Shown in pieces: positions 8,183-62,706 of a stretch of DNA of 64,000 nt. Source of the DNA: Xanthostigma xanthostigma. Lineage: Eukaryota > Arthropoda > Insecta > Raphidioptera > Raphidiidae. The stretch lies in NCBI GenBank assembly GCA_963575645.1, contig OY754469.1:37716753-37780752 (forward strand), read 5' to 3'. How positions within the stretch are numbered: position 1 is the first letter of the stretch; each line of letters starts with the position of its first letter. The notes beneath the pieces are model-generated. The model saw only the letters and a list, made by a program, of their open reading frames with translations. It had not been told where the DNA came from and made no database searches. The translations under genes were made by a program, and so were the position numbers.

Positions 8183-8923
8183 TAGCGGACCCGGCGAACT
8201 TCGTACCGCCTAACAGTATTATATATATATATATATCTATATAATTGGAACATCTATCTATCTATTTTATTTATTTTAAAATATACATGGACGTATATGT
8301 GTGTATGTCGAACACTCCGGCTGCGCCGTCGTGCCCGGTGCAAAAGAACGAATGGGGATATTTGAATCTTTGATTAACGTCTGATTAGTACTCTTCAATA
8401 AATAAATTATCGACCAATTTTTATAAGATCAACAACATTTTCGATATGAATAAAAAAAAGTATACTTACAACACAAAATCCGTTGTTATTGGAAGCTCGT
8501 GTCACGTGTTGAGTACTTTTGAGGTTATAAAATCACTTGAAAATTATTTAATGATGAAAAATGTTAAAAGTATATATAAATGTTTTTTTAATTTTTGACA
8601 GAATTTTTTCAAATCATACATAAGGCTGTTTATATTTTAAAACCATGGATACGAATTTAAAAAAAAATTCGTGTCTTTAATAATACTTTATACCATAGCA
8701 ATAAAGCTCAAATTGACTACGTTTTAGTTAGAAATCATTTGTATGGGAAAAAGAAAAGGGCTATTTTTAGGGTTTTTCCAGCAATAATTCTAATTTTTCT
8801 CGCCGTAAAAACCATCCTTGAACTTCAACGAACATTTTAAAAAAAGATTTGGCCAAATTGGTCCAGGCGTTGTTGAGTTATGCGCTTACCAACACATTTT
8901 GCGATTCATTTTTATATTATAGA
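8183..8923 (-). mobile_element. Second non-autonomous Helitron, adjoining the first
   Basis: On the minus strand it begins TCTATAATATAAAAATGAATC (8923) and ends GGGTCCGCTA at 8183. It shares the middle and 3' part with 7122-8182 (for example ATCCGTTGTTATTGGAAGC and CACGTGTTGAGTACTTTTG) but has a different 5' head. A piece of the foldback retroelement family (AATCTTTGATTAACGTCTG, 8367-8420) sits inside it. Confidence 0.75.
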
Positions 8924-9611: not shown

Positions 9612-10362
9612 TCTATACTAATATATAAAGCTGAGGAGTTTGTTTGGTTGAGCGCACTAATCTCAGGAACTACTGGTTCAAATTGAAAAAAAAATTTTTT
9701 GTTGGATAGCCCATTTATCGAGGAAGGCTATAGGCTGTATAATATCACGCTACGACCAATAAGAGCGGAGCATCAATGAAAAATGTTGCAAAATGTATCT
9801 CAAAAATAAGCTTCTATTTAGGTGAAATACCGTAACTAAATATACCAATATTAGCGTTGCACATCAGAAGCCTGGCTGGCTCAGTCGGTAGAGTACATGA
9901 CTCTTAATATAAGGGTCGTGGGTTCGAAACCCACGTTGGGCGAATAAATTTTTATTTTTTTTTTTTAATTTTCTACATTACTTTCTTACGTTTAGTTTTT
10001 TTAGATTTTATTTACGACTAATTAAAATTAAATAAATCTAATTAATAGCTCATTTGAAAACTGTTTTAACTATACGTATACCTACCTATATAAAAATAAT
10101 TATCCTACAGTGTTTTCAATTAAATATTTGTTATATTTTATTAATTCCAGTAATTATTGATTTAAAAGAAATTTATTATCTATACTTATAAAAAGTATAA
10201 TTACTGCTTTTTATCGACAACAATTTTTGAACGGTAACTCCGATCATCATGAAATTTGGACACAACATTCATCTCGGTAAACTAAGATAAATGTGCGTAC
10301 TCATGTTCCTCTCTTCCCCATTCGTTCTTTTGCACCCGGGTAAAACCGGGCGGGACCGCTAG
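9612..10362 (+). mobile_element. Helitron (Lep1-like head) carrying a tRNA-like insert
   Basis: It starts TCTATACTAATATATAAAGC and ends CCGGGCGGGACCGCTAG followed by T. The head includes the conserved CTCAGGAACTACTGGTTC and TCACGCTACGACCAATA motifs. Near the 3' end CACCCGGG/CCGGGCG can form the terminal hairpin typical of Helitrons. Between the conserved halves lie a tRNA-Lys-like sequence and about 220 bp of AT-rich sequence. Confidence 0.8.
9870..9942 (+). tRNA. tRNA-Lys(CTT)-like sequence, probably a pseudogene or SINE head
   Basis: The 73 bases match eukaryotic tRNA-Lys-CTT across the acceptor, D arm (GGCTCAGTCGGTAGAG) and T arm (GGGTTCGAAACCCACG). The acceptor halves GCCTGGC and GTTGGGC nearly pair. 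The anticodon stem is broken: CATGA against TATAA forms only about one pair around the CTCTTAA loop. A T-rich run follows. I read it as a decayed tRNA-derived insertion inside a Helitron, not an active tRNA. Confidence 0.6.
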
Positions 10363-10506
10363 TCAATTATACAGACGTTAGTTCAATTAATTTAAATAAA
10401 TAAAATCGTAACTTAGTCTGTAATAAAACAGTTTTAATGACTCCTAGAGCGAATTTTCAGTTTTCATCACAGTTTTCTGTTTATATTTTTTGGTACCTAT
10501 CTTCTA
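10363..10506. other. Short spacer between Helitrons
   Basis: AT-rich sequence with no feature that I can support. Confidence 0.3.
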
Positions 10507-10828
10507 TCTATACTAATATATAAAGCTGAAGAGTTTGTTGTTGGTTTGTTTGATTGAACGCGTTAATCTCAGGAACTACTAGTTCGAATTGATTTTTTTT
10601 CTGTTGGATAATCCATTTATCGAGGAAGGCTACAGGCTATATAATATCACGCTACGACTTACAAGAGCGGAGCATCAATGAAAAATGTAACTTAAAGTTT
10701 GTCCGTCCAACAAAAACTTTTAAACGGAAACTCCGAGCATCATGAAATTTAGACACAACATTCATCTCGATAAACTAAGATAAACATTCGTTCTGTTGCA
10801 TCCGGGTGAAACCGGGCGGGACCGCTAG
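10507..10828 (+). mobile_element. Short Helitron (322 bp)
   Basis: It begins TCTATACTAATATATAAAGC and ends CCGGGCGGGACCGCTAG. It has the same head as 9612-10362, then TGGATAATCCATTTATCGAG and a short link to the 3' hairpin region. It is a minimal non-autonomous derivative with no coding sequence. Confidence 0.85.
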
Positions 10829-10829
10829 T

Positions 10830-11035
10830 ATAATTATTATAAATTCGCTCGATTTGTAGATTGCCACCGTTTTTTCGTCGACTTTAACGTTGCAAAATCG
10901 ATATCCACGAAAAGCGCTTAACATTAAAATGGATATGGTAAGCTATCCTTAAAAGATAGACATATTATGCTATCGCGAACTTTTCTGTAGACCTATAAAA
11001 GGGGAACGATTTCACCATACATTGTTTTGGTGTCC
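10830..11035 (-). mobile_element. Helitron-like 3' fragment, inverted partner of 280-498
   Basis: The reverse complement matches 290-490 over GATAGCTTAC(T/C)ATA, AGCGCTTA and the CGACGAAAAAACGGTGGC block. The GC-rich CTAG end is missing here, because the copy abuts the Helitron ending at 10828. Confidence 0.55.
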
Positions 11036-12781: not shown

Positions 12782-12839
12782 CAGTTACTAGATGTGAGTA
12801 ACATTTTGTTACATAAACGGTTTTAGTGTAAACTAAATG

Positions 12840-12925
12840 AGCAAATCTTAGATTAACGTCTGAATAGAACTCTTTAAATAAATAAAATTATCGACCAATT
12901 TTTTCAAACTGTATATTGACAAAAA
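12840..12925 (+). mobile_element. Fragment of the foldback retroelement family
   Basis: The motifs GATTAACGTCTGAATAGAAC, then AAATTATCGACCAATTTTTTC match the outer part of the elements at 16077-16311 and 23102-23381. The core with the GAAAC motif is missing. Confidence 0.65.
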
Positions 12926-13400
12926 ATTATAAAATTATAATTCAATAAATTTTATTGAATTATTAATTATTGAATTACTAAATAAGCATAACATTTTGTA
13001 ATTCAATGAAATTAATCGTGTTAACATTAATTGTTAAAAATTAGCAGTGTGTTACTGGATAGGGGAACGTTGGGTATTCCCAATTTGATGACAATAATGG
13101 TCACTATATTATCGGACTCATGTGTTTACAGATTTTACGTACGTATTTTCAAGTTTTTAGTCTCAACTTCTTACGCAAACAGTCTTCTGCTTCGCTGCTC
13201 AGCCAATGGAAATAATTATTAAACTGTCAAAAATTTAAAAACGGTTCTGATTGGTCTGTGATTGTGACGAAGTGGGGGTAAAGGAGAAGTCAAAAATACA
13301 TACATGAGTTGATTAGTTCCGACAGGTTGAAAATTCCTATTCATTAATTCTACTGCGTATGTCAAAGTTCCTAGCGAGTTTATGTCTGCGTTTCCGCCAA
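12926..13400. other. AT-rich palindromic DNA, nothing assigned
   Basis: 12950-13020 contains several overlapping AATTCAATAAATTTTATTGAATT-type inversions made of AATTCAAT units. Further on there are short frames of 61-63 codons with no domain. Confidence 0.35.
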
Positions 13401-15564: not shown

Positions 15565-16064
15565 ATGTAACATAAAGCAATATATAACCAACGACGTGTG
15601 GCATATAACAGAATCATCGACGGGGTTTTATCGATTTATTAAATGGATCATTGTAAAACATATCAACGATGCGTAGTACCTCAGTGTAGCAATACTTCTA
15701 TAACTATGGCCTGAAATAGTCGTGCCATATAAAACCGAAATACAAAGAAAATGGTTGTAACTTAGAAGAAGAAACGATACTCCTCAAATATCAACAAATT
15801 CACCGACTTTTTGTATGACGTAAGTATTACCCTGATAGATACGTTTTAATACAAGAAAATGTGGAAATATTTTTTTTAATATTCTACGTTTTTAAAACGA
15901 ACTAAAAAGTATAAAACAATTTCTCTAAGCATCATGGATTTGAAACGAAAATCGTGGGGCGCATGCGACAATTATATAAGAAATGTGGAGATTAGCTGTC
16001 TATGAATAAGATAAAACGAACACTGCGCCCCAGTTTTTCGTTTCAAATACCAGTCATAAGGCTT
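15565..16064. other. Unassigned intergenic DNA
   Basis: About 15930-16060 shows a loose inversion (CATGGATTTGAAACGAAAATC ... TTTTTCGTTTCAAATACC). No gene is visible. Confidence 0.35.
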
Positions 16065-16076
16065 AAAGAAATTATT

Positions 16077-16311
16077 CAATAAATAAAATTATCGACCAAT
16101 TTTTCAGACAAATATATTAACAAAAAATATATAAAATTAATACATTAACGTTTCGGTCCGGATTTTAGATCAGTTCTGAAGAAGGTCCAAATCCGGGCCG
16201 AAACGTTAATGTATTAATTTTATATATTTTTTGTTGACATATTTGTCTGAAAAATTGGTCGATACTTTTATTTATTGAAGAGTTCTAATCAGACGTTAAT
16301 GAAAGATTTGA
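16077..16311. mobile_element. Foldback retroelement copy A (Penelope-like candidate)
   Basis: The two halves are inverted copies: AAATTATCGACCAATTTTTCAGAC at the left and its complement at the right. It is flanked by a perfect 12-bp duplication AAAGAAATTATT (16065-16076 and 16312-16323). Duplications of this length point to target-primed reverse transcription, not hAT or Harbinger. The plus strand has a hammerhead-like core: CTGAAGA at 16177-16183, a GGTCC/GGGCC stem, then GAAAC. The left arm lacks the CTGAAGA part. Confidence 0.75.
16177..16214 (+). ncRNA. Hammerhead-ribozyme-like core in copy A
   Basis: CTGAAGA fits the conserved CUGANGA. The segment AGGTCC-AAATCC-GGGCC can fold as helix II, GAAAC follows, and AC...GT could close a two-pair helix III ending GTA. 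I could not find complementarity for helix I next to the core, so activity is doubtful. Confidence 0.35.
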
Positions 16312-16323
16312 AAGAAATTATTT

Positions 16324-18354
16324 TATACTTTTTTTATACTTTTTAGTTTAGATATTTAATCTTTTTAATTAAATATCTTTTTAATTAGTCGGGCGCAACG
16401 GGTTTTTATTTTTGTTTTTAATAATTTATTAAGGTTTTAACTTTAATTTAAATAGTTTTTTTTAAATTTCCATCGACTAGTTTTGGAGAAATCAATGAAA
16501 ACATATTATCCATCTACTGTTTTACCATAAAGTCAATGTTAAATATGCCTACTTTTGAAGTCATTTATTTGTTTAAATAGTCGGGCAAACCCCCTAAAAT
16601 TTTCAGAATTGATTTAGACTTAGTGTAACTACATACAAAAAAATCAAGCCTTTTATTTTAAATTGCCTTGGTGCTCGTACTACCTTAACAATTGGAGATA
16701 TGCAAAATATACAATCCGCTGAAATTAAAATATGCACTGCATGCTACTATGTTCAATCAAATGCGCTAAAAATTTTTCGAAGAATTCTGATGGGTTTTCT
16801 CAAAGAGGACGATTCGTTGAACAGAGTACACCGATTTGAATTCAGTGCAGCAATGCATTCGAACGTCGTCCTCCACGTCGCAGTTTGAGCGTTGCGACGA
16901 CAACGACGTCGACGTCGACTACTCACCACCGCGTTTCAAGCCATCTCAATGCACTCCTCATCACCACAGCGCGCTCCTATTATTATTATTAGGATCTAGA
17001 GTCACAAGACGCAGAAGCTTATGTTTTTTACGTGATAACGTCTTATAAATTGATGAAACACCGACTACACGCACGAAAAAGAGTAACGTTCCGCAAGCGA
17101 GAGCGCGATATAAGCGATAGTCTCTCTCTTCGCGCGTGACGTCAGAGAGTAGTGTGCGTTCAACATTTTTTTCGGCTGTTCCAGCAAAAGCTACATCTGA
17201 CAGATGGCCAGATAAATTATACGGTTTGTTAACAAATATATAATATATATTATAGCACGGCAGTGGAAGGATTTCTGGTAACGTAGGTCCATTCCCACCT
17301 GTGAATAAATAAAAGAAAAAAGACGGACAGATTTCTCAAAACGGTGGATTGTTTGGGCTGTACCGGTGTTATTTTGGGCCCATAGTGATCAGAGAGGGTA
17401 CAGCTCCACTTCTTCCACTGTTCTGAGAAACTTGTGCAGAAATGTAACAAAGAAAAGAATATGCAGTTGGTCGATAACAATTATATTTCATAATCACTTC
17501 AAAAAACGTGTCGGTGATAAGGTACAAAGAAATCTGATTTACAAGTACATTCTTAATATTAACAATATCATTTGATCATGATTGACAATTAGGAACTGGG
17601 GGTAGAACCCTGACGAGGTGATCACTTAATTATCTAGGGAAGTACATTTAATAAGGTTGTTTAAATTAAAAAAAAAAAAATAATAAAACGTGAAAGAGGA
17701 AAAGAAAACTAGGCGTGAGCGTCATACCTTTTTCCGAAGAGTACTTACTTACACTTGAACAATACTTATTCTAGGAATACTTTACATAATTCGTGAGTGA
17801 CTACGGGTATTTAGGCGCTTCATGGTAGTACAATGAAGTCTAAATTCGGTTTGGAGAAGAAGCTTGAAGATGATTCTGTGGTTTATTCCATGAGCGTCCT
17901 TTTCATGCGACCACACCGAATCCCGGAAAACAACTTAATGTTTTTTATTTTCCGTAACTAATAAATATTGATTTTAATTATTTCAAACCTAACAACTATT
18001 GTTTGTCACTTTTTCACTTTTGAAAATCACAGATACCGCGTATTTAGAGTCAGACGACTGGATCACACGATAGACACACTTATGTTTATAAGTCCAAGCC
18101 ACGCGATCCAAATCGTACCGCGCATGCAAATACCCGCGAATTTAGTGATTTAAGATTTCCTTATTTATTTATTTTATTATAATAATTTTTATGCTAATAT
18201 TAAAAAAATGTCGCGGTGCTATGGCACCACGTGACAATATACATTCTTTTAAATGTCTTTTATAATTGCTTAAAAATATGTATTTTGCTTTGGTTGATTA
18301 AATTATTAGTCGGTAAAAATATAGTTTGACAGCTACTAAAATTTAGATTATGTA
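16324..18354. other. Intergenic DNA with a dispersed-element fragment
   Basis: 17018-17110 in reverse matches 25598-25700 (CACTTTTTCGTGCGTG, GTTTCATCAATTTATAAGACG), with an ACGTGATAACGT motif. 16830-16960 is GC-richer and rich in ACGACGTCGACG, but has no known domain. 17110-18354 is unassigned. None of the short frames resembles a known protein. Confidence 0.4.
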
Positions 18355-18435
18355 TTATTAAATATGATATTCGAGCGGAATACGTTATCACGTAAAACTA
18401 TCGTCCGTAAACCGACTTTACAGACAACCAATTTT
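18355..18435 (-). repeat. Dispersed-element end, inverted partner of 25503-25580
   Basis: The reverse complement reads TTGGTTGTCTGTAAAGTCGG and then CGTGATAACGTATTCCGCTC, matching 25503-25580 almost exactly. Confidence 0.75.
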
Positions 18436-18634
18436 TTTTTTATATTTCAATGGGAATATAGCATTTTTTTGTTAAATATCTCCATTTGTTTCACAACGAA
18501 TTCAAGATAAATAAAATACTAGGCTCAATCCATAAAACTTGCGGGAATAACATTAGAGATCTGCAGAACAAAAGAACAGTGTTTTTTCATGTATGCTGAA
18601 CTGATTTTTATATGAAGAACCAAGGATTCCATGG

Positions 18635-18920
18635 CAAGGGCGTAGATATTTTTTTCTGGGGAAGTGGGGGGTGTTAAAGCAAAAAAATCAATAAGATTTT
18701 TAAGGTTTATTAATATCACACAAGAATACTCATGAAGGAAGGTGTCAAGCAAAATATTTATTCCCAAACTACTTTTACTTACAAGTTTATTTTCAAAAAG
18801 TATTTCTGAATTTTATTTTTTAGCCAGGTATTCGTATTATTTTCAGTTTTATTTTTTTTTATTGTGATCCTGGGGAGGTTAATTACCCTCTTTACCCCTT
18901 CCCCAGTGTCTACGCCCCTG
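18635..18920. mobile_element. hAT-type element, second copy of the CAAGGGCGTAG family
   Basis: The ends are CAAGGGCGTAGATAT and TGTCTACGCCCCTG. The interior shares ATATCACACAAGAATACTCA with 830-1106. The flanks TTCCATGG and CTTCATAG are only a loose 8-bp match, so this copy is older or the duplication has decayed. Confidence 0.75.
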
Positions 18921-19085
18921 CTTCATAGCTCATTTGTTTAAGATCATTTAATTAACCACATACTGGTAAGAAACCATACTAGTGTGACGTTTGTAATAAG
19001 TGATTCAGACAATTTATTAAGCCATTTAAATTATAACAAACACACACATCCAGGTGAGAAAGCATAATTAATTTTTGAATTAATT

Positions 19086-19500
19086 TAAAAATTCCAGCCA
19101 ATTGGGCGACGGGACCATTCCAACTTCAAAAATGTTGACATTTGATTATAATAAAGAAAATAAAATTTCTGATATCGTGTGAGGTGTCGCGGGTAATGGC
19201 TAGTATTCAATATGATATTTGCTATTCGTTGCCATGGTTACCTACATAATATTGTCCACGCCATGTAAAAATTAATCAAAGCATGCCGAACTAGTTTATT
19301 TCTGACAGATCCATAAAACAAAAGAGCGGCTGATTTTTTTTAATTTTCAAAATATTTCCGAAACTATAAAGCTTAGAAAAAAAAAATTTAACGAAACTTT
19401 CATGAAAAAATAAATAGAATAATAAGCCGTTATGAAAAGTACACCATTATTATATAAAAAACACCGTTTTAGCATATATCTCAACTTCAAGTTGACAGCT
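19086..19500 (+). mobile_element. Dispersed ACCATTCCAAC element, 5' portion
   Basis: It runs from CCAGCCAATTGGGCGACGGG through GACCATTCCAACTTC and the shared block TTGACATTTGATTATAAT to the ATATTTCCGAAACTATAAAG motif and CACCGTTTTAGCATATATCTC. It corresponds to the reverse complement of the right part of 36108-36775. The family is unclassified. Confidence 0.65.
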
Positions 19501-20128
19501 TGAGGTTACCTATGTTTACAAATGCACGCAACCGTAGTGACAGTGACTAGTGACAGCTGAGTACTAATCAATTAATATTTTACTAATTACATTACTATAA
19601 TTATTTAGTTATAATTCGCATTAAATTAAATCAAATAAATTTTTATGTGAATTTCTATTAATTATCATAGCACAATTTGGGTAACTATTTGAGGGAAAAA
19701 AAGTCATTTATTTGACTTGGGATTGCGGCTCCCAAACTACCTTAAATAAAAGCTTGTAAAAAAGGTGTAAAGTCATGTAAGAACCGAAATGATATAATGG
19801 CAGAAAAAAATACCAGATCTAAGCTTAATACTTATTTTTTTTATTATTGATGTCCTGTTCGATTTTTCTGAAAGGAGGATCGTATTACTCGTACAAAGAA
19901 CTATACATTTTAATGCATATTGGAACACCCAATGTAAACTATTAGGTGCAGTTTTTAAAAAGTCGATATTATTATAAGCTCTTCGCTGCAACTTCGGTAT
20001 ATCATTCCAGCTTCGACAGCCTATTGATACTGATTTTCAATTTAATCACCTGAGATTAAATTTATATATGAATAGTTAAAGGATGTGCAAATAGCAATGA
20101 GCCGTCGGCAATATTCCCAAAGAACAGG
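19501..20128. other. Unassigned intergenic DNA
   Basis: No gene or paired terminus is visible. The reverse 72-codon frame at 19773-19991 has no recognised domain. Confidence 0.35.
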
Positions 20129-20141
20129 TCCCACATTTTTA

Positions 20142-20511
20142 ATAAATAAAATTATCGACCAATTTTTTAGACAATATCATTCGATCCGGATTTGGATCTT
20201 CTTCAGAACGGATCTAAAAATATAAAAAAATAATTAATAATTAGTTTCTATTTATTTTTAATGTAATTCGTGAAAGATTTTTTTAAATATAGAAATATTG
20301 AAAAAATAATAACAAACAATGAATTACATTAAAAATAAATAGAAACTAATCATTAATTATTTTTTTTATATTTTTAGATCCGTTCTGAAGAAGATCCAAA
20401 TCCGGATCGAAACGTTAATGTATTATTGATATTTTTTGTTAATATATTGTCTGAAAAATTGGTCGATAATTTTATTTATTGAAGAGTTCTAATCAGACGT
20501 TAATCAAAGAT
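20142..20511. mobile_element. Foldback retroelement copy B (Penelope-like candidate)
   Basis: Two inverted halves of the same family as copy A are flanked by a perfect 13-bp duplication TCCCACATTTTTA (20129-20141 and 20512-20524). The right arm carries the CTGAAGA / GATCC-GGATC / GAAAC core at 20385-20422. In the left arm the GAAAC is damaged (CGAATG). The middle holds a further inversion (TTTCTATTTATTTTTAATG and its complement). Confidence 0.8.
20385..20422 (+). ncRNA. Hammerhead-ribozyme-like core in copy B
   Basis: CTGAAGA, then a perfect GATCC/GGATC helix II with an AAATCC loop, then GAAACGTTAATGTA. It has the same layout as copies A and C. No helix I partner was found beside it. Confidence 0.38.
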
Positions 20512-20524
20512 TCCCACATTTTTA

Positions 20525-20720
20525 GATGTGAAACATCTAGTGGCGTGTTTGATTGGGAGCAAAACCGTCCAATTGGCGCGACACTTTTACGGGAGGACGT
20601 TACGTTTGTGTGCGTTGGATTTGACATTGCTTTAGCTGACGGCGACATCTAGATAACAGGGCGAAATTTAGTTACTAGTGTTTCGTTAGATGGCAGCGTA
20701 TGACGCTTGTTTTGTGTATG
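20525..20720 (+). repeat. Dispersed repeat 'GTGAAACATCTAGTGGCG' copy
   Basis: GTGAAACATCTAGTGGCG at the start and CAGGGCGAAATTTAGTTACTAG near 20660 match 12291-12590. It directly follows the foldback's right duplication. Confidence 0.6.
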
Positions 20721-21106
20721 CAGCTCTGTTAACCGTGCTTTTATAAATACAATGTGAAATAAACATTTATAATATAAATTAAATAACTATACCTATTATG
20801 GTTCGTTAAACAAATGAATTTCTGAAAGTTAGTTGGGTAAAGTATGACGTGTCATTGACGACTACTGTAAGACTCGCTGATTTTTATACGCTTTATATTA
20901 GTTTGGGTTGTAACTAAGTATGTATGTCCGTAACGGAATCTTTGAGCATAATTTTCACCAATTTCCCGAAGTCTGATTAATTTGAAACTTTGCATACGTA
21001 TCAAGGACCGATGACAATGCAATAATTTGATAACAGTTTCCCATTATCCTTATTAGGACCCCCAGGATTAATAAATTATTTTATAGATCCTCAAACTAAA
21101 AAGTGA
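20721..21106. other. Unassigned intergenic DNA
   Basis: The stretch near 20930-21040 (TCACCAATTTCCCGAAGTCTG, then AAACTTTGCATACGTATC) resembles the head of a dispersed repeat, but no copy in this window confirms it. No gene is seen. Confidence 0.3.
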
Positions 21107-21333
21107 AAAATAAAATATAGTTTAAAAAAAACTAAAAAACACGCTTTATATCGGACTAAAAAGTAAAAAATAATTGTTTTAAAATAAGCTTAAAAAGCGT
21201 GGGGCGCTTTGTTCCACATTTTCGTACATCGAGCGCCCAACGCTTTTTAAGCTTATTTTAAAACAATTATTTTTTACTTTTTAGTCCGATATAAAGCGTG
21301 TTTTTTAGTTTTTTTTAAACTATATTTTATTTT
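21107..21333. repeat. Near-perfect palindrome with 94-bp arms
   Basis: Arms 21107-21200 and 21240-21333 are near-exact inverted copies around a 39-bp loop. The arms carry ACACGCTTTATATCGGAC and TAAGCTTAAAAAGCGT. There is no coding sequence. Probably a MITE or a collapsed foldback element. Confidence 0.85.
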
Positions 21334-21454
21334 AAAGTATTTTTTGTACTTTATTCGACTTTTGCTGCTGGACTGGCATTCGAGTTTCAAGTATTCGCAC
21401 ACTCTTAGACATTTCTTTTGTCAGTCTAGTAGTCTACTGTCTAGCTTAGCCTTT

Positions 21455-22070
21455 TTTTCAACGGTTAAATATTTGCTTTTAATATTATAGCTCGAAGTAA
21501 CTGAACTTACTTTTTTAAATTTCGGAGATCGATCTTAAAATTGTAAAATTATAATTAATAACATATTATTATATTAGATATTGTATCCATCGAGATAATA
21601 ATAAATAAAAAAATCGCAGGATTGTGGACAAATATTAGATTTATTAATTGTACGACGTTTCGTCTATAGATTTAGACTTTTTCAAGTACAAATAGCACAG
21701 GTAATAGAGTCGAATAAAAATGCTAATGACTTAAGTTTTAAATCTACAAATTTTCTACAACTTTTACTTTAAACTTTTTTTTCTAAAATTAATATTTTTC
21801 AAGTTATAACGCGTAACATGTTACCTGTGCTATTTGTACTTGAAAAATTCTAAATCTATAGACGAAACGTCGTATAATTAATAAATCTAATATTTGTCCA
21901 CAATCCTGCGATTTTTTTATTTATTATTATCTCGATGGATACGATATCTAATATAATAATATGTTATTAATCATAATTTTACAATTTTAAGATCGATCTC
22001 CGAAATTTAAAAAAGTAAGTTCAGTTACTTCGAGCTATAATATTAAAAGCAAATATTTAACCGTTGAAAA
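21455..22070. mobile_element. Second foldback family with GACGAAACGTCG motif
   Basis: Arms of about 245 bp face each other from TTTTCAACGG (21455) to CCGTTGAAAA (22070). Each arm contains GATTGTGGACAAATATTAGA and the GACGAAACGTCGTA motif beside a TCTA...TAGA stem. The layout resembles the 16.1/20.1/23.1-kb family, but the CTGANGA box is replaced by CTTGAAAAA. No clear target duplication was found. Confidence 0.7.
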
Positions 22071-22490
22071 TTAATAAAATTAATGACTTCTTAAACTAAG
22101 CTTGTTACATTGAATTGTATTTGGCGTATTCTAAGCTGATTCCAGTGTTGGAGAATAAAAATATCTGTTCTGGGACTTGGTCTTATTTTGAAAAGAATTG
22201 TTTTTGGTGGGATATTATATTCACACGAGCGTTATACGTATATGATTTCATTTTAGCACAGTCGAGAAAGAAATAACGGAAATCTTTCATTATTAAAACA
22301 ACCTGAGAAAATTATAACCCCAGTGGTTTTAAAAATCACGATCGTTATAAGTTCTTGTTTTGGTTACGATCCCACGGGAAGCGCTCGTATAGCAACGACA
22401 TCTCATATCGCCAAGACGCACTGCTCTTTTCACATGCTCCATAGAACTTATATTACCGGAAAGGAACAAAATTGGCCCGTCTGACATATT
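22071..22490. other. Unassigned intergenic DNA
   Basis: No gene is recognised. The reverse 84-codon frame at 22329-22583 overlaps the Helitron fragment and is not credible. Confidence 0.3.
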
Positions 22491-22698
22491 TTGCAAATCT
22501 ATATTTATAAACTCAAAATCAAAATTTGTCCGTCCCACACAAACTTTTGAACGGTAACTCCGATCATCATGAAATTTGGACACAACATTTATCTCGGTAA
22601 ACTAATAAAATAAACGTGCGTACTCATGCTAAGCCCCCGCCCCCCACCCCTCTTAATACGCTCTTTTGCACCCGGGTGAAACCGGGACGAACCGCTAG
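22491..22698 (+). mobile_element. Helitron 3' portion
   Basis: It contains AAACTTTTGAACGGTAACTCC, ATCATGAAATTTGGACACAAC and ends CACCCGGGTGAAACCGGGACGAACCGCTAG. The head is missing or unrecognised. It is followed directly by another Helitron. Confidence 0.7.
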
Positions 22699-23187
22699 TA
22701 ATAGATATATAAAAATCAATTGCCGTGCGTTAGTCTCACAAAAACTCGAAAATGGCTCGACCGATTTGAATATATTTTTGTGTTTTGTTCGTCTCAATAC
22801 TGGGGTGGTTTAAGGAAACAAAATTAGGAAAAAGCCAACGGAACAGCCGAAAAAACGAAAAAATCAGATTTTTTTATATATGTTCCTGATAGTCTGAATA
22901 CGATTTTCGGGGGAAAAAAAACTGTAAAAGTTGCTCGGAATGTGGTTGTCGTTGCCGAGCGAGACTGTAATACGGTGAAGCCGAAGGCTATGTGTATATA
23001 GTCTCAATCACGTGCGAACCCGCGAGTAATTGGCTATTATTAATAAATATAAGACAACGCCCTGTAAATTCGGCTATTATTCTATATAATAATCTATCTT
23101 TAAATCTTTGATTAACGTCTGATTAGAACTATTCAATAGATAAATAAAATTATCGACCAATTTTCAGACAAATATATTAATAATTAA

Positions 23188-23225
23188 TACATTAACGTTT
23201 CGGTCCGGATTTGGACCTTCTTCAG
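23188..23225 (-). ncRNA. Hammerhead-like core, copy C left arm
   Basis: The minus strand reads CTGAAGAAGGTCC-AAATCC-GGACC-GAAAC then GTTAATGTA. Helix II pairs perfectly (GGTCC/GGACC). Confidence 0.38.
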
Positions 23226-23282
23226 AACTGATCTAAAAAATATTAAAATTGATTAATTAGTTTTTATATTTTTCGATCAGTT

Positions 23283-23320
23283 CTGAAGAAGACACAAATC
23301 CGGACCGAAACGTTAATGTA
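23283..23320 (+). ncRNA. Hammerhead-like core, copy C right arm
   Basis: CTGAAGAAGACACAAATCCGG then ACCGAAACGTTAATGTA. Helix II has decayed on the 5' side (GACAC instead of GGTCC), unlike the left arm. Confidence 0.33.
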
Positions 23321-23440
23321 TTAATTATTATTTTTTGTTAATATATTTGTTTGAAAAATTGGTTGATAATTTTATTTATTGAATAATCTATCTTTTATAA
23401 CCAATCTACAAATCTGGGCGCAGCCGGACGGGGCCACTAG

Positions 23441-24137
23441 TACCTATTAATGTAAAAAATCATATTGTGAAAGTTATATTAAATAAGACATTTTTTGAAA
23501 AAAGTATTTTTCGTACTCCTTTTTTAAAAAATAAGGTAACCTTGAAATAATATCTTTTATCAGTACTTTAACATCATATGTAATTAATAATCAACCTAGT
23601 ACTCAGAACCACTACAAATGTGTGACTTTGACTTGCACGGTCAATCAGTTGTGTTTTAACCTTGAACAAAAGACGCCAGATTTGAAAACTGAATATTCGC
23701 AAATCGCATTCGCATTCATGATTATCGGCGACAGATTCGCGAATGTCTCAAAAATTAGCATTCGTTACATCACTAATGATTACGTCGCTATAATGGAGAA
23801 TGATAAATTAATTTGACATTGAATGTAATAAAAATACCAAAATAAAATTTAATGTAAGTTATATAAGCGAAAAGTACCTACACGAAAATGAGGAAGAAAG
23901 CCGTTACGTAGGTCACATTTAGTGGTGATGTGATGACTTATAGTTCAGCCCACTTTCAAAAGACGGCTTAATAAAATGTACGTGCATTACAATGAACGAA
24001 CTAATTTCTTTAACAATATAGTTTTAAATATAACATAATGAAAGCGCTTCAAATGCGATGAGTAATATAAAAAAATGCGTGTGTTGCGACACTCGAAGGA
24101 TGTGTACCTAACTTCTTATGGAATACTCAATAAAATC
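23441..24137. other. Unassigned intergenic DNA
   Basis: No gene, RNA or repeat boundary was recognised. The 64-codon frame at 23622-23816 has no known domain. Confidence 0.35.
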
Positions 24138-25502: not shown

Positions 25503-25700
25503 TTGGTTGTCTGTAAAGTCGGTTTACGGACGATAGTTTTACGTGATAACGTATTCCGCTCGAATATCATATTTAATAATACATTACTGCGCTCTCGCTT
25601 ACACGCACAGGGTCAGGCGGAACGTTATGGAACGTTACACTTTTTCGTGCGTGCAGCTGGTGTTTCATCAATTTATAAGACGTATCACGTCAAAAACTTA
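25503..25700 (+). repeat. Dispersed repeat 'TTGGTTGTCTGTAAAGTCGG'
   Basis: It begins TTGGTTGTCTGTAAAGTCGG, followed by ACGATAGTTTTACGTGATAACG, and ends near TTATAAGACGTATCACG. Parts recur inverted at 18355-18435 and 17018-17110. The class is unknown. It directly precedes the 120-bp array. Confidence 0.65.
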
Positions 25701-25701
25701 G

Positions 25702-27427
25702 TCACCATCTTTAGAAGTCCGCCATATTGGATTTAGAGTGACGTCACTTTATTTTTCGAGTTATTCTCAGCAAGCCCTTTCATTTGATACCCATATTGTA
25801 AGAAAGCATAGTAAAATTAGTCCGCCATCTTTAGAACTCCGCCATATTGGATTTAGAGTGACGTCACTTTATGTTTCGAGTTATTTTCAGCAAGCCCTTT
25901 CATTTGATACCCATATTGTAGGAAAGCATAATAAAATTAGTCCGCCATCTTTAGAAGTCCGCCATATTGGATTTAGAGTAATGTCACTTTATTTTTCGAG
26001 TTATTCTCAGCAAGCCCTTTCATTTGATACCCATATTGTAGGAAAGCATAATAAAATTAGTCCGCCATCTTTAGAAGTCCGCCATATTGGATTTAGAGTA
26101 ATGTCACTTTATTTTTCGAGTTACTCTCAGTAAGCCCTTTCATTTGATACCCATATTGTAGGAAAGCATAATAAAATTAGTCCGCCATCTTTAGAAGTCC
26201 GCCATATTGGATTTAGAGTAATGTCACTTTATTTTTCGAGTTATTCTCAGCAAGCCCTTTCATTTGATACCCATATTGTTAGAAAGCATAATAAAATTAG
26301 TCCGCCATCTTTAGAAGTCCGCCATATTGGATTTAGAGTAATGTCACTTTATTTTTCGAGTTATTCTCAGCAAGCCCTTTCATTTGATACCCATATTGTA
26401 GGAAAACATAATAAAATTAGTCCGCCATCTTTAGAAGTCCGCCATATTGGATGTAGAGTGACGTCACTTTATTTTTCGAGTTATTCTCAGCAAGCCCTTT
26501 CATTTGATACCCATATTGTAGGAAAGCATAATAAAATTAGTCCGCCATCTTTAGAATTCCGCCATATTGGATTTAGCGTAATATCACTTTATTTTTCGAG
26601 TTATTCTCAGCAAGCCCTTTCATTTGATACCCATATTGTAGGAAAACATAATAAAATTAGTCCGCCATCTTTAGAAGTCCGCCATATTGGATTTAGAGTG
26701 ACGTCACTTTATTTTTCGAGTTATTCTCAGCAAGCCCTTTCATTTGATACCCATATTGTAGGAAAACATAATAAAATTAGTCCGCCATCTTTAGAAGTCC
26801 GCCATATTGGATGTAGAGTGACGTCACTTTATTTTTCGAGTTATTCTCAGCAAGCCCTTTCATTTGATACCCATATTGTAGGAAAGCATAATAAAATTAG
26901 TCCGCCATCTTTAGAAGTCCGCCATATTGGATTTAGAGTGACGTCACTTTATTTTTCGAGTTATTCTCAGCAAGCCCTTTCATTTGATACCCATATTGTA
27001 GGAAAGCATAATAAAATTAGTCCGCCATCTTTAGAAGTCCGCCATATTGGATTTAGAGTGACGTCACTTTATTTTTCGAGTTATTCTCAGCAAGCCCTTT
27101 CATTTGATACCCATATTGTTGGAAAGCATAATAAAATTAGTCCGCCATCTTTAGAAGTCCGCCATATTGGATTTAGAGTAATGTCACTTTATTTTTCGAG
27201 TTATTCTCAGCAAGCCCTTTCATTTGATACCCATATTGTAGGAAAACATAATAAAATTAGTCCGCCATCTTTAGAAGTCCGCCATATTGGATGTAGAGTG
27301 ACGTCACTTTATTTTTCGAGTTATTCTCAGCAAGCCCTTTCATTTGATACCCATATTGTAGGAAAACATAATAAAATTAGTCCGCCATCTTTAGAAGTCC
27401 GCCATATTGGATTTATAGTGACGTCAC
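25702..27427 (+). repeat. 120-bp tandem repeat array, 14 full units
   Basis: Fourteen units start at 25741 and every 120 bp to 27301, with a 38-bp partial unit before and a few bases after. Each unit holds CCGCCATCTT and CCGCCATATT (YY1-like cores). At the junction most units read GTGACGTCAC, a full CRE palindrome: nine of fifteen junctions have TGACGTCA and six have the TAATGTCA or TAATATCA variant. Units differ by only a few substitutions. Because 120 is divisible by three, one frame stays open for hundreds of codons (25738-26133, 26221-27474) with a 40-residue repeat. I do not consider it a gene. Confidence 0.95.
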
Positions 27428-27660
27428 CGATTTTCCCCAAAAAATTTACAAAAACTTCTAGTAAAAATAGATAAAATAATAAGTCTTTTTAAAAACTATA
27501 TTATTATTATATAAAACAACATTATAAGAGATATATTCTTTTACGCATGCGCCGATGTTCCCCAAAAACAATAGGCCACTTCATATTTGCATATCAAACA
27601 TCCTCCCAAAATTTGGTTTCAATCCGCTCTTCCTTGATGTCGGAATGATAAGAAATGTCA
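27428..27660 (+). mobile_element. Dispersed ACCATTCCAAC-family fragment after the array
   Basis: CGATTTTCCCCAAAAAATTTAC, then ACGCATGCGCCGATG and CCTCCCAAAATTTGGTTTC match 33190-33520. The array ends exactly where this element's CGATTTTCCCC begins, so the array sits within the element. Confidence 0.7.
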
Positions 27661-28398
27661 AAAGTGACGTTTGCATCAGCTGTCAAAGTATTAAATTCTA
27701 ATAATTAGTTATTCAAATTGTTAACTTAGAAGGCGTTGCTTTTCATAAATATTTCAAATGGCATCCGTTTTTGAACAAATGCTATCTCCTTTGTTTTATT
27801 ATTGTCATAAATAAAATTATCGACCAATTTTATTTTAAGACAGAACATACGCAATAATTAAATTACCATGTTATACCGTGCAACAGAGAGAGATAACCGA
27901 AAGATGTTTGCTATCGGTTATATCAGATTGAATTTATTTCTATATAAATGTGTATAAGAAAAGTGATTGGGCGAATTCTGTTGTACGAAATTTATGTAAA
28001 ATTTTCTCCTCTTTCGTTTAAGACAGGTTTCGAACCGATCTGATTTAAATTGAGCGAGTTATAAGCGAAAAACTTCGTTTTTTCTAAATTGCTCCCCTCT
28101 GGAGCAAAAATTCAAAAATCGGGCGACGTTAGGATTTAAGTTACCCGGAGACAAATCGAACAAAAAAAAGTTTTTTAAAATCGGTTAAGTCGTTTGGGCT
28201 GTACGCTGGATACAAAAAGCGTGACTCACAGATTCACAGATTCACAGACAAAGCGAGTACATATAGGCGCTTTAGCTTACGCTATTCGCGCCTAAAAACC
28301 AGCGCTGGAAAACTAGTAGTCAAATCTAGCAAGGAATCTAGCGGCAACTCCAGCCTCGTGTGCAGAGGCCTTTACTTATAAGACTGTGTAATAAGTAG
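27661..28398. other. Intergenic DNA with small repeat fragments
   Basis: 27809-27850 carries the foldback-family motif AAATTATCGACCAATTTTA. 28200-28300 contains three CACAGATT(CA) repeats and an inversion TAGGCGC...GCGCCTA. 28310-28378 is the end of a TIR family (AATCTAGCAAGGAATCTAGCGG ... CCTCGTGTGCAGAGGCCTTT) shared with 31165-31230. Confidence 0.45.
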
Positions 28399-39274: not shown

Positions 39275-40157
39275 GCAGAGCATAGTGGCGCATTCGTTTG
39301 CAAAATTCGTTTGGTTCGTAATTTTTTTTTTTTTAAATGTCCAGGAGGCTCTCCTGATTATAACAGTGTAACATGACACTCAATATCTGTTGCCGTTATT
39401 GTTTAAACAACGAAAAATTGAAAATATTGCAAAATAAGTTTTTTTGCAATAAATAATTTTTTTATATATTTTTCAGACTATTTTGAATCGAAAAAGTCCT
39501 TACACTCATTATCGTATCTTCAACCGGTGAATTTTTATGAATTTTTAAAAATTTCAAATATTTTATTAATTATTATGTTTATTATTCATAATAACAATAT
39601 GCAATAATTTGTCGAAGCGTACCATCTGCCTCTCTCTTACTAATATCATACGTAGGACTGGGAGTGAGATGACAATACTACTATCCTTAAAGTGCATGCG
39701 CGTAAAGAGCATATTGTTATTATGAATAATAAACATAATAATTAATAAAATATTTGAAATCTGATTACGCCATTTTTTTTATTAAAGTTTAAATATTTAA
39801 TAAAAAAATAGAAATCACGGTATTTTTTTTTCAGGTGTACTATTATTTAATTCAAGAAAATCACGATTTACAACGATTTTTAATTTTTAAAAATTCATAA
39901 AAATTTACCGGTTGAAGATACGATAATGAGTGTAAGGAGTTTTTCGATTCAAAATAGTCTGAAAAATATATAAAAAAATTATTTATTGCAAAAAAACTTA
40001 TTTTGCAATATTTTCAATTTTTCGTTGTTTAAACAATAACGGCAACAGATATTGAGTGTCATGTTACACTGTTATAATCAGGAGAGCCTCCTGGACATTT
40101 AAAAAAAAAATTACGAACCAAACGAAATTTGCAAACGAATGCGCCACTATGCCCTGC
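39275..40157. mobile_element. Foldback element (883 bp) with GCATAGTGGCGCATTCG ends
   Basis: Arms of about 300 bp run from GCAGAGCATAGTGGCGCATT to AATGCGCCACTATGCCCTGC. They share GGAGGCTCTCCTGATTATAAC and CGGCAACAGATATTGAGTG in inverted positions. An inner inversion (TTATTATGTTTATTATTCATAATAACAATATG) continues towards the centre near 39650. A TTAG outer base match may hint at a TTA duplication. No coding capacity. Confidence 0.85.
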
Positions 40158-43409: not shown

Positions 43410-44427
43410 AGGTATAGGCAATTCGTGTTCCATAGGGAAATGTTCTAAGGTTTTGACCCTTGTACAATGTACATGTTGTGAAATAAACCCTAATGCAACT
43501 TGCGCGCATCGTGTTTTTGTATATTTTGAATAAAACGTGATCGCTCAAAGGTCTCATATTATTTTAGTAACGATCGGGTCTGATCGTCGGTTTAATGTGA
43601 TAATCACGTAATTCCAAAAAAACAATCAAGCTCGGTTGCAGAAAGCATTGTCAAAACTTCTGATTTGACCTTAGATTGTGACCACACGTAGTTCACCGTA
43701 AAATAATGCTATAATAATTGCTAGAAAAATAATTAATCTATTGAAACGTCTATAATAGCGCTTTTGGATGAGAGTAAAAACAACGCGGTGCGACACTGTG
43801 ACGATACGTCGTTACGTTTTTTAGTTAACTAGTGTTTCGTTAGATGACAGCGCTCAACGGTTGCTGTGTGGTATGCGTTGGATTGTAACTTGTTTTTTGT
43901 TGACTGCGACATCTCTCTGAGATTTATTAGTGATACTAGAATAGTCACTTATTTTAATTCAATCTCACGCCTCAAAATGCTGAACTATTGAAGTGAAACT
44001 TCTTTAGGCGCGACTTGAGAGCAGCTCTAATCATTTTTCGGACGGAAGTAACGTGATTGCTCAGCTTACGCTATTTAAAGGCATCGACTGACAGATGGCT
44101 GAACTAAAAGTGAAACATAGCTGCGCGGACACAAACCAACTTTGTGATCAGTTTCCGCTATCGAGTGACAGATGGCGGCATCTTGAACCATCTTGAATGA
44201 AATATGAAACATAGCTACGGACGCAAACCAATAAGGATAGCCAAAGTAATTTAATTTACGAGTGATTTGATTTATTACTGAATATTTCCCAAAAAGTGAG
44301 AGTGGTAAAAACAAATTGAAAGAAATTTTACTTTAACCACGCACCAGCCCCGGATCTGGGGAGGAAACCGGGGTACCTGCCCCAGATGGAAGTTTCAGGA
44401 GGCGCCAAAATAATAATATAATATGCA
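43410..44427. other. Intergenic DNA with a dispersed-repeat copy
   Basis: 43800-43925 shares ACTAGTGTTTCGTTAGATG(A/G)CAGCG and GTATGCGTTGGATT with the repeat at 20525-20720. 44085-44235 has a duplicated GACAGATGGC...GTGAAACATAGCT word pair. CGCACCAGCCCCGGATCTGG near 44340 looks like a transposon end with no partner found. Confidence 0.4.
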
Positions 44428-44692
44428 AATCTTTGATTAACGTCTGAATAGAACTCTTCAAATAAATAAAATTGTCGTCCAATTTTTCTCAGACCAATAT
44501 ATTGACAAAAAAAAAATAACAAATCAATATAACATAAGATGACGTTTCGATCCGGATTTGGATCTTCTTCAGAAAAATCTAAAAAATATAAAAATTATTA
44601 GTATTAGTTATTTAATATTTAATATAGAATGCACGATGATTGAAATTTTTGAAACGTCATCTTATGTTATATTGATTTGTTATTTTTTTTTT
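44428..44692. mobile_element. Foldback retroelement copy D
   Basis: The left arm has AATCTTTGATTAACGTCTG, then AAATTGTCGTCCAATTTTTC. On the minus strand at 44541-44572 it reads CTGAAGAAGATCC-AAATCC-GGATC-GAAACGTC. The right arm keeps GAAACGTCATCTTATGTTAT and is then cut short. A TATGCA word lies at both sides, too short to call a duplication. Confidence 0.65.
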
Positions 44693-45513
44693 ATGCACTC
44701 ATTTTTTGCAACAGTTTGTCAAATCTAGCTTCAGCGCATCTAGCGCTGAAATATAGGAACCCTTATTTTCAAGGCCGGATTTAGCACGGTGCCATGTGGG
44801 CCCGAGCCCATAGCAGCAAAAGTTTAGGGGCGGCAAAAAGGCAAAAAAAACTGGAAATTGCAGCGAAATAATAATATTACAGTACTATCTTTTATCTGGA
44901 ACAAAACTAACATTTCATTCCAGTTTTACAAAAGATTCGTATGTGCGTGTGATAGTCATGAATGAGCCAATGCCAAGTTATTCGTTTGACTCAAACTAAA
45001 TGTGCGCCTGTACTTATTTTCCTCACTTTGTATAATTAATGAATGGAGATTGAGCTCCTTTCTCTCTATTCTCCTAAGTAAAAACTATATGAAATTAAAA
45101 ACTATATAAATGGCTATCGCACACAAAAGAAATTGTTAAATGAATATTCAGCATGAAATTTCATTGTTCGCTTATATAATATTTATAGTTTAGTTAGGTT
45201 TCCTGTAACACCTATTTTTTAAATAAATAACTAAGGAAATGAATATAATATCCCACCGAATAAATAGCGTACTCCACTTTTTAAAAACCGTAAAATGGTC
45301 TTGATAAAAACTTTTACAATAAGACCGGGTGTATTTTTGTAGCTTGAGGTATGGTTAGTTATATAGCTGCTGAATTACATACATATACAGTCCACTGAAA
45401 ATATTATATCGTTTTTCTAGTGCTTTTAACAAAACTGACGCTTTCAATATTATATAGAACAGGGGCGCCGTCTCCGCGGGTGCTCGGGGTTCCCAGCAAT
45501 CTCAGAAAATAAA
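44693..45513. other. Intergenic DNA with a hAT-like single end
   Basis: CAAGGCCGGATTTAGCACGG at about 44770 followed by GGGCCCGAGCCCATAGCAGC has the look of a hAT terminus. No matching right end is visible. No gene. Confidence 0.35.
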
Positions 45514-61997: not shown

Positions 61998-62315
61998 TCT
62001 ATATACTAATATATTATAAAGCTGAAGAGTTTGTTTGTTTATTTGGTTGAACGCGTATCTCAGGAACTACTGGTTCCAATTGAAAATTTTTTTTTGTTGG
62101 ATAGTCCATTTATAGAGGAAGGCTATACGCTATATAATCACGCTACGACCAACAGGAGCGGAGCATCAATGAAAAATGTTGCAAAATGTAACTCAAAATT
62201 TGTCTCTCCGACAAAAACTTTTGAAATTTGAAAAAAACTCATGAAATTTGGACACAACATTCATCTCCCCCCATTCGTTATTTTGCATCCGGGTGAAACC
62301 GGGCGGGCCCGCTAG
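61998..62315 (+). mobile_element. Short Helitron (318 bp)
   Basis: It starts TCTATATACTAATATATTATA and ends CCGGGTGAAACCGGGCGGGCCCGCTAG. The head and tail motifs match 10507-10828 closely (ATCTCAGGAACTACTGG, AATCACGCTACGACCAAC). No coding sequence. Confidence 0.85.
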
Positions 62316-62706
62316 TATTATATAAAGATGGAAATATAAAAATGTGATTACTACACAAACAGCATAATATTTGTATTATAAAAATAGTTGTGTCACACAA
62401 AAAAGCCACAAATGACATCAATATTTGCTGAAAGTATTTTATTATGCGATTGATCAATGAATGAACGCGTGAGCCAATTTCGCAACTTCGCGAGACGAAA
62501 GTAAATCTGTTCAGTCTTCAAAAAATTCGACGAAGAAAATAATAAGTTTATGTATCAAGATCGTAATGCAATATTTTATGTGCGAGTAGTGACATTATGG
62601 AAAAATGAGCGCTGTTTATTATCAATTTCCCGAAAATTATAGCTGTTGGAAACATCGCATTAGTAGATTATATTCTAGTTGCCAAATGATATATTTATAA
62701 ATAATA
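62316..62706. other. Unassigned intergenic DNA
   Basis: No feature is supported. Confidence 0.3.

What the first reader, a model, noticed from the sequence alone, without database searches (positions are those of the whole stretch)
16077..23381. Foldback retroelement family with hammerhead-like cores and 12-14-bp target duplications
Seen: three copies (16077-16311, 20142-20511, 23102-23381) are self-inverted and each is bounded by a perfect but different duplication (12, 13 and 14 bp). Each carries CTGAAGA, a GGTCC/GGACC-type stem, then GAAAC and a short loop ending GTA. Known: the hammerhead core is CUGANGA-helix II-GAAA, and Penelope-like retroelements are reported to carry short hammerheads. 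Inference: these are non-autonomous Penelope-like relatives that insert as inverted repeats. Weak point: no helix I complementarity is visible beside the core.
Basis: partly seen in the sequence, partly recalled or inferred. Interest (0 to 1): 0.72.

Follow-up and report, generated by a model that had tools for sequence, protein, structure and literature searches.

The report
Inverted-repeat offshoots of Penelope-like retrotransposons
Three short self-mirrored DNA insertions, and many sisters in the same animal genome, are protein-less offshoots of a Penelope-like jumping element also found in that genome; the way their ends are built gives a clue to how such elements insert, but the kind of element is already known.

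Summary
In detail: copies A (16077-16310), B (20142-20511) and C (23102-23381) are foldbacks between perfect duplications of 12, 13 and 14 bp. The window's own 623-Mb genome holds an apparently full-length Penelope-like element (PLE) with the same ends (L112, 813-codon open frame) and a 4.85-kb PLE palindrome (L111). Small foldbacks are the PLE's terminal pLTR twice, head to head.

Duplications of 11-15 nt flank 46 of 61 distinct foldbacks (0.4% of mismatched controls). Most 3' ends fall at two places about 29 nt apart, tailed and untailed. Of 42 arms found without using the tail, 23 are tailed and 19 not, yet 9 of 9 head-to-head pairs have one of each, with 13-15-nt duplications. Published PLE work explains the two ends as two internal RT start sites.

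The hammerhead resemblance is the minimal PLE type without helix III; read so, helix I is 4 bp in B, 3 in A and C, about absent in sister subfamily D. Rfam finds no hammerhead. Cleavage is untested and no clear footprint was found.

New member of a known kind.

The parts
16065..16076 (.). target-site duplication of copy A, left (12 bp)
   Evidence: exact match
16077..16310 (+). copy A: head-to-head foldback; untailed inverted pLTR piece at left, tailed sense arm at right
16176..16204 (+). hammerhead-like core CTGAAGA - stem II - GAAAC of copy A; predicted cleavage after GTT at 16205-16207 (inference)
16277..16310 (+). tail of copy A (sequence beyond TTTATTTATT)
16311..16322 (.). target-site duplication of copy A, right
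20129..20141 (.). target-site duplication of copy B, left (13 bp)
20142..20511 (+). copy B: foldback; left arm inverted and untailed, lacking part of the core region (no complete GAAAC)
20385..20413 (+). hammerhead-like core of copy B; helix I candidate CGTT / AATG (4 pairs, one G.U)
20481..20511 (+). tail of copy B
20512..20524 (.). target-site duplication of copy B, right
23088..23101 (.). target-site duplication of copy C, left (14 bp)
23102..23381 (-). copy C: foldback in reverse orientation; tailed arm at left, untailed arm at right
23197..23225 (-). hammerhead-like core of copy C, tailed arm
23283..23311 (+). hammerhead-like core of copy C, untailed arm (stem II partly broken)
23382..23395 (.). 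target-site duplication of copy C, right
44422..44697 (-). copy D (sister subfamily, GTC after GAAAC); inverted arm stops early; only a weak 6-nt flanking match TATGCA, included in these coordinates
44544..44572 (-). hammerhead-like core of copy D; stem II 5 bp, no convincing stem I
12832..12988 (-). copy E: 3' end of a subfamily-D-like copy, no core, with 12-nt duplication (one mismatch) included in these coordinates
8366..8422 (-). fragment F: tail and end of the pLTR only
27806..27832 (-). fragment G: short untailed end

Best explanation
The foldbacks are non-autonomous insertions made by an endonuclease-bearing Penelope-like element (PLE). The PLE protein cuts both strands of an AT-rich target about 13 bp apart. 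Each freed 3' end primes reverse transcription inside PLE RNA, one from a 'tail' start site and the other from a start site about 29 nt upstream of it. Both cDNAs grow towards the RNA's 5' end, stop after variable lengths, and are joined to each other. The result is a head-to-head inverted repeat with one tailed and one untailed outer end between 11-15-nt duplications. If both cDNAs stop early, only the terminal pLTR is copied: copies A-C. Shown: anatomy, the two preferred ends, duplications, and a PLE partner with coding capacity. Inferred: two separate priming events, the order of steps, and mobilisation of the small copies in trans. The hammerhead-like core is of the minimal PLE kind; whether it cleaves is unknown.
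For: Partner: L112 has an inverted untailed pLTR piece, a direct pLTR, an 813-codon open frame (stop to stop; start codon not determined) whose first codons lie in the tail, a pLTR with tail, and a 13-bp duplication read by eye. Its protein aligns to that of a second PLE of this genome, L097 (33%, E 2e-66), which passes the Pfam cut-offs for RVT_1 and GIY-YIG; by phmmer its nearest solved chains are reverse transcriptases, weakly (E 0.003 and up). L028 holds GIY-YIG coding DNA between foldback arms; its peptide has 150 scored matches, all at E below 1e-31. L111 is a 4,850-bp palindrome, 99.9% identical, with a 728-codon PLE open frame in each arm. Ends: 54 of 61 inverted arms end untailed opposite a tailed partner, 1 tailed, 6 elsewhere (these loci were picked by tailed queries). 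Of 42 arms found by a query without the tail, 23 are tailed and 19 not, and 9 of 9 head-to-head pairs have one of each, with 13-15-nt duplications in 9 of 9 (longest in 72 mismatched pairs: 8). Published: PLE tail = stretch between two internal RT start sites, and both target strands cleaved and extended (PMC11167929); tail optional at one of the inverted pLTRs (PMC3846280, passages).
Against: [quoted passage not shown] 11 of 59 short foldbacks, and L111, are nearly spacerless palindromes, which two independent cDNA ends would not readily give; snap-back copying fits these better. Arms of one B-type copy are not clearly more alike than arms of different copies (own partner strictly best in 2 of 26; D-type 4 of 16), so a shared template is not shown. 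L118 carries tails on both outer ends, and one of 61 (L004) counts as tailed, though there the tailed arm may belong to an older neighbouring copy. The L112 protein gave no Pfam match at E 0.001 and only two weak unrelated ones at E 0.07 and 0.31. The 42 arms are those most like L112 (40 of 1939 candidates scored), so other copies may differ. No transposition was observed.
Confidence: 0.7

Rival explanations
1. Snap-back copying: a single cDNA started at the tail site folds back on itself by a short hairpin at its end and is copied into a head-to-head inverted repeat.
For: L111's centre reads as a 5-nt stem with a 4-nt loop (AAATT-CATT-AATTT), and outside the centre the arms differ at one site. 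11 of 59 short foldbacks are nearly spacerless palindromes against 0.7% of 295 off-axis controls; copies with indels near the axis would be missed, so 11 is a lower bound. Self-priming is discussed for PLEs in PMC3846280 (passages).
Against: It predicts that the copied arm also carries the tail and then inverted target DNA, but 9 of 9 large pairs and 54 of 61 short ones have an untailed arm opposite the tailed one. 48 of 59 short foldbacks did not show the palindromic axis.
Confidence: 0.2
2. Two independent insertions of opposite orientation next to each other, or later inversion by recombination.
For: Both orientations occur at many places in the genome; one tail-to-tail pair was seen (C5:5749837-5750567).
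Against: A single 13-15-nt duplication encloses each of the 9 large pairs examined, and one of 11-15 nt encloses 46 of 61 short foldbacks.
Confidence: 0.03
3. A DNA-transposon MITE or foldback element with transposase-made duplications.
For: Terminal inverted arms and target duplications look MITE-like; six other inverted-repeat pairs of the window that I looked at show neither PLE ends nor a duplication above 8 nt.
Against: The outer ends do not match each other (one tailed, one not), duplications vary from 11 to 15 nt, and the coding source found is a PLE. The genome was not searched for transposases with these ends.
Confidence: 0.02
4. The hammerhead-like core cleaves PLE RNA in vivo and sets the 5' end of insertions.
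For: Conserved core with stem II kept through an A-U to G-C change in 3 of 64 distinct cores; other GIY-YIG loci of this genome carry the motif with different stems, for instance L081 4 bp and L088 7 bp in stem I; in L112 the 5' direct pLTR begins at AATG, the base run right after GAAACGTT, within about 3 nt of ambiguity; 8 of 22 D inverted arms stop within 15 nt of the predicted cut (two of these are doubtful alignments).
Against: None of these arms stops exactly at the cut, and RT stopping beside stem II would look the same. In B 2 of 31 arms stop within 15 nt, one doubtful. Other 5' ends lie at pLTR positions 76, 85, 88 (a duplicated locus), 93, 98, 108, 125 and 150 with the cut after 94, and three loci run further upstream. 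Part of the first D sample was biased because its query held the window copy's own junction. Stem I is about absent in D. PMC11167929 found ribozyme mutants without effect on insertion in vitro and no reads at its cut.
Confidence: 0.3

Closest known systems
Endonuclease-bearing Penelope elements of Adineta vaga (PMC3846280; passages seen)
   Same: pLTRs in direct and inverted orientation, head-to-head junctions, tail of about 31 bp optionally at the 3' end of one inverted pLTR, short target duplications (8, 9 and 10 bp in the passages seen), first codons inside pLTR/tail
   Different: duplications here 11-15 nt; ORF-less foldbacks are common here (their ratio to full-length copies was not counted); the paper's text holds no mention of hammerheads
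Poseidon PAc of Anolis carolinensis (PMC11167929; parts 1-2 of 4 and passages read)
   Same: tail = stretch between two internal RT start sites; both target strands cut and extended; AT-rich targets; hammerhead motif near the start of the ORF
   Different: no strand difference in start site seen in vitro; here each of 9 natural head-to-head pairs joins one tailed with one untailed arm
Minimal PLE hammerhead motifs (Cervera and de la Pena 2014; Lunse et al. 2017; neither held; seen only through reviews PMC6155905 and PMC7761336, passages)
   Same: hammerhead core in pLTRs, no helix III
   Different: by my reading one extra nucleotide stands between CTGANGA and stem II, here and in the other GIY-YIG loci (whether the published motifs share it was not checked); stem I 4 bp or less in this family
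Metazoan retrozymes (PMC7761336, passages)
   Same: small non-autonomous retroelements with type I hammerhead motifs, PLEs suggested as helpers
   Different: here the element is a PLE pLTR in inverted duplicate; no circular RNA or tandem hammerhead array was looked for

Membership tests
Penelope-like elements (endonuclease-bearing) | ORF with PLE-type RT and C-terminal GIY-YIG endonuclease in the autonomous partner | tested here: met
   L112 open frame of 813 codons, 33% identical (E 2e-66) to the L097 frame, which passes Pfam RVT_1 and GIY-YIG cut-offs; motifs YVDD and YIGQTKR read by eye. The L112 frame alone gave no relevant Pfam match. No tree was built, so PLE-type RT rests on the RT plus GIY-YIG order and the element's anatomy.
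Penelope-like elements (endonuclease-bearing) | pseudo-LTRs, direct and/or inverted, with optional 30-40-bp tail | tested here: met
   L112; two end classes about 29 nt apart
Penelope-like elements (endonuclease-bearing) | target-site duplications of variable length | tested here: met
   11-15 nt
Penelope-like elements (endonuclease-bearing) | tandem or partial tandem copies | tested here: met
   L113, L114 and L121 keep further pLTR sequence upstream in the 5' pLTR; L115 has, read by eye, the end of an ORF and 3' UTR upstream of it; L117 has pLTR - ORF start - pLTR
Hammerhead ribozyme, minimal PLE type | core CUGANGA ... GAAA | tested here: met
   132 occurrences (two window copies counted twice), 64 distinct, in the sequences examined
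Hammerhead ribozyme, minimal PLE type | stem II with covariation | tested here: met
   five pairs formed in 91-98% of 64 distinct cores; A-U to G-C in 3. Rows are related, so these are few events. Stem II of 4-6 bp in six other GIY-YIG loci, two of them (L088, L090) alike in sequence
Hammerhead ribozyme, minimal PLE type | stem I beside the core | tested here: inconclusive
   4 bp in B (shuffle P 0.0125), 3 bp in A, C and L113 (P about 0.16), 1 bp in D (P 0.30)
Hammerhead ribozyme, minimal PLE type | match to an Rfam hammerhead model | tested here: not met
   none; the same models also miss the motifs of the other loci, so this says little about the minimal type
Hammerhead ribozyme, minimal PLE type | site-specific self-cleavage | not testable with these tools
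   needs an in vitro assay

The most novel reading that the evidence does not exclude
PLE insertion in vivo is built as an asymmetric pair: of the two cut target strands one always primes reverse transcription at the tail site and the other at the upstream site, so each head-to-head foldback is a single event recording both start sites. The ORF-less pLTR foldbacks of this genome are then a large natural record of aborted PLE insertions.
Probability: 0.45. Interest if true: 0.55.

Novelty: new member of a known kind. Interest (0 to 1): 0.4.

Why it matters
How Penelope-like elements join both ends of their DNA to the target is still open (PMC11167929 leaves the later steps to be validated). A genome with many young, duplication-flanked foldbacks of one PLE family makes the question countable: where each strand's cDNA starts, how far apart the cuts are, and how the two cDNAs are joined. 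The mixed-ends rule (9 of 9 large pairs) is a direct prediction for strand-resolved in vitro assays. It also shows that MITE-like foldbacks in annotation can be retroelement products.

Tried and rejected
Hammerhead by Rfam covariance models: no hammerhead at the gathering cut-off in the window, at E up to 10 in 15900-23600 and 20360-20440, or at E up to 5 in 16 loci. Sub-threshold hits to microRNA families there I read as an effect of long inverted repeats.

Cleavage footprint: I first saw inverted arms of subfamily D stopping near the predicted cut, then noticed that the query held the window copy's own junction, which selects such copies. The fairer query shows 22 inverted arms by my count from its table (direct neighbours and second pieces left out); 8 stop within 15 nt of the cut, none exactly on it, and two of the 8 are doubtful alignments. 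B shows 2 of 31, one doubtful. I treat the footprint as unproven. One search is unreliable (lax gap costs, wrong cut coordinate for D) and no count from it is used.

Shared private variants between the arms of one copy: not shown. The first palindrome test aligned through the spacer and was replaced; 2 of 61 copies (L009, L066) were dropped there because their outer end was not reached. The L078 motif was not tied to a PLE and has no stem II; it is not counted among the other loci.

A coding reading of subfamily D's end (30 aa) found only short open frames (longest 111 among the 150 scored), so it did not lead to the partner; the GIY-YIG peptide from L028 did. Scan of viral contigs for the core: 0 matches. 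Literature: 6 searches; I met no report of ORF-less PLE foldbacks of this kind in their listings or in the passages read, but most subscription papers are not held, so no claim of first report is made.
Full report
WHAT IS THERE. The three foldbacks exist as described, with exact duplications of 12, 13 and 14 bp. Further copies or fragments lie at 44422-44697, 12832-12988, 8366-8422 and 27806-27832. Five full cores CTGAAGA...GAAAC are in the window, four of them in copies A-C.

THE GENOME. The window is part of an assembly of 623 Mb in 28 contigs, unnamed; that it is an insect is only my guess. The 144-nt tailed arm of copy B gave 1368 first-look candidates, of which 40 were scored; 16 of these show 100% identity over at least 143 nt, the window copy included. 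Copy D gave 1917 candidates, 40 scored. So the family is large and part of it is probably young. Candidate numbers are not counts of copies.

ANATOMY. I examined 80 loci and the window copies. 63 entries have an inverted arm, 61 after removing two that are the same copies as L001 and L009. An exact flanking duplication of 11-15 nt occurs in 47 of 63 (46 of 61 distinct; mode 13), against 0.4% of 1241 mismatched flank pairs. In 45 duplications, taken without repeats, the A+T fraction is 0.82, against 0.66 in the window. The sense arm was chosen to carry the 3' tail. The other arm ends 20-36 nt short of the tail's end in 54 of 61, carries the tail in 1, and ends elsewhere in 6. The tailed one, L004, is complex and may involve an older neighbour.

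PARTNER. One long foldback, L028, holds a GIY-YIG coding stretch between its arms. Its peptide finds 2002 candidates, 150 scored, with open frames up to 813 codons. L112 (C8:33811900-33815700) is apparently full-length: inverted untailed pLTR piece, direct pLTR, open frame of 813 codons that begins within the tail (stop to stop; start codon not determined), pLTR, tail, and a 13-bp duplication on both sides, read by eye. Its protein is 33% identical (E 2e-66) to that of another PLE in the genome, L097, which passes Pfam's cut-offs for RVT_1 and GIY-YIG. L112 itself gets no relevant Pfam match; its nearest solved chains are reverse transcriptases at E 0.003-0.07. L111 (C9:15659600-15664900) is a 4,850-bp palindrome with four mismatching positions, that is one site in the arms and one at the centre, a 728-codon open frame in each arm, one tailed and one untailed end, and a 13-bp duplication read by eye.

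THE MIXED-ENDS RULE. To avoid choosing by the tail I searched with 355 nt that stop before it (1939 candidates, 40 scored, 42 matches), then fetched the ends of all 42. 23 are tailed and 19 not. One of the 19 ends a few nt short of the usual place. Nine head-to-head pairs are among them, and all nine have one tailed and one untailed arm; one tail-to-tail pair has two untailed ends. All nine head-to-head pairs share a 13-15-nt flanking duplication; the longest match in 72 mismatched pairs is 8. Each is therefore best read as one insertion. At least one exception exists: L118 has tails on both outer ends, while L119 is again mixed.

MECHANISM. For a PLE of Anolis, purified protein cleaves and extends both target strands and starts reverse transcription at two internal sites, the stretch between them being the tail (PMC11167929; parts 1-2 of 4 and passages). 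Two strands and two start sites, one each, give the structure seen here if the two cDNAs are joined (inference). That paper reports no apparent start-site difference between strands, whereas the natural pairs here are mixed. A minority are nearly spacerless palindromes: 11 of 59 short foldbacks, against 0.7% of 295 off-axis controls (a lower bound, as indels near the axis hide the pattern). For these, and for L111, snap-back copying is a fair rival. The arms of one copy are hardly more alike than arms of different copies (B: 0.975 against 0.970, 26 copies; D: 0.972 against 0.961, 16 copies), so the data do not say whether one RNA or two served as template.

HAMMERHEAD. Reviews describe PLE hammerheads as minimal forms without helix III (PMC6155905, PMC7761336, passages). 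Read so, the predicted cut follows GAAACGTT. Stem II is 5 bp and its pairs hold in 91-98% of 64 distinct cores, with one pair changing A-U to G-C in 3. Stem I is 4 bp in B, 3 in A and C, and 1 in D. Other loci of this genome found by their GIY-YIG domain, which I take to be PLEs though only L097 was tested for an RT, have the motif with different stems: L081 stem II 5 and stem I 4; L087 4 and 3; L088 4 and 7; L090 4 and 5; L091 5 and 3 (cut site chosen by me); L098 6 and 2. Rfam hammerhead models match none of the sequences tried. L112's 5' pLTR begins at the predicted cut, within about 3 nt, but the other 5' ends scatter around it, and 8 of 22 D arms heap within 15 nt without hitting it. Activity remains open.

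KNOWN OR NEW. Inverted pLTRs, the tail at one of them and small duplications were described for rotifer Penelopes (PMC3846280, passages), and inverted pLTRs with short 3' extensions are in a curation guide (PMC8969392, passages). PLEs are also a major class in the monarch butterfly (PMC8848866, abstract and passages). This is a new family member with many ORF-less foldback derivatives. The pairing of tailed with untailed arms is the part I would follow up.

Noticed in passing
window 59077-59795, 21455-22070, 39325-40110, 21098-21342: Other foldbacks with 95-99% complementary arms of 111-320 nt; no PLE ends and no flanking duplication above 8 nt found.
   Followed up: partly
window 25585-27564: Array with a 120-bp unit that keeps one reading frame open for 446 codons (26134-27474).
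   Followed up: no
window 10319-10368, 10785-10834, 22655-22704, 62272-62321: Repeated ends with a GC-rich hairpin and CTAGT, resembling Helitron 3' ends (from memory, not tested).
   Followed up: no
L111 (C9:15659600-15664900): A 4.85-kb near-perfect palindrome in the assembly, with hairpin-like centre AAATT-CATT-AATTT.
   Followed up: partly
L118 (C10:22979550-22980150): A small element whose two outer ends both carry the tail, an exception to the mixed-ends rule.
   Followed up: no
L130, L140, L143, L147, L151, L152, L159, L163, L166: In these 9 of 23 tailed ends the tail runs on to GATTTGAAT before the target sequence, suggesting overlap with the target or a spread of start positions.
   Followed up: no
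L097-L099 (C4:23141539-23149617): A second PLE family, in tandem and inverted copies, with its own hammerhead-like motif ending GAAAT.
   Followed up: partly
C22:284691-285016 and 573667-573992: Matching PLE stretches twice on a small contig of 662 kb, which looks like a segmental duplication or assembly copy.
   Followed up: no
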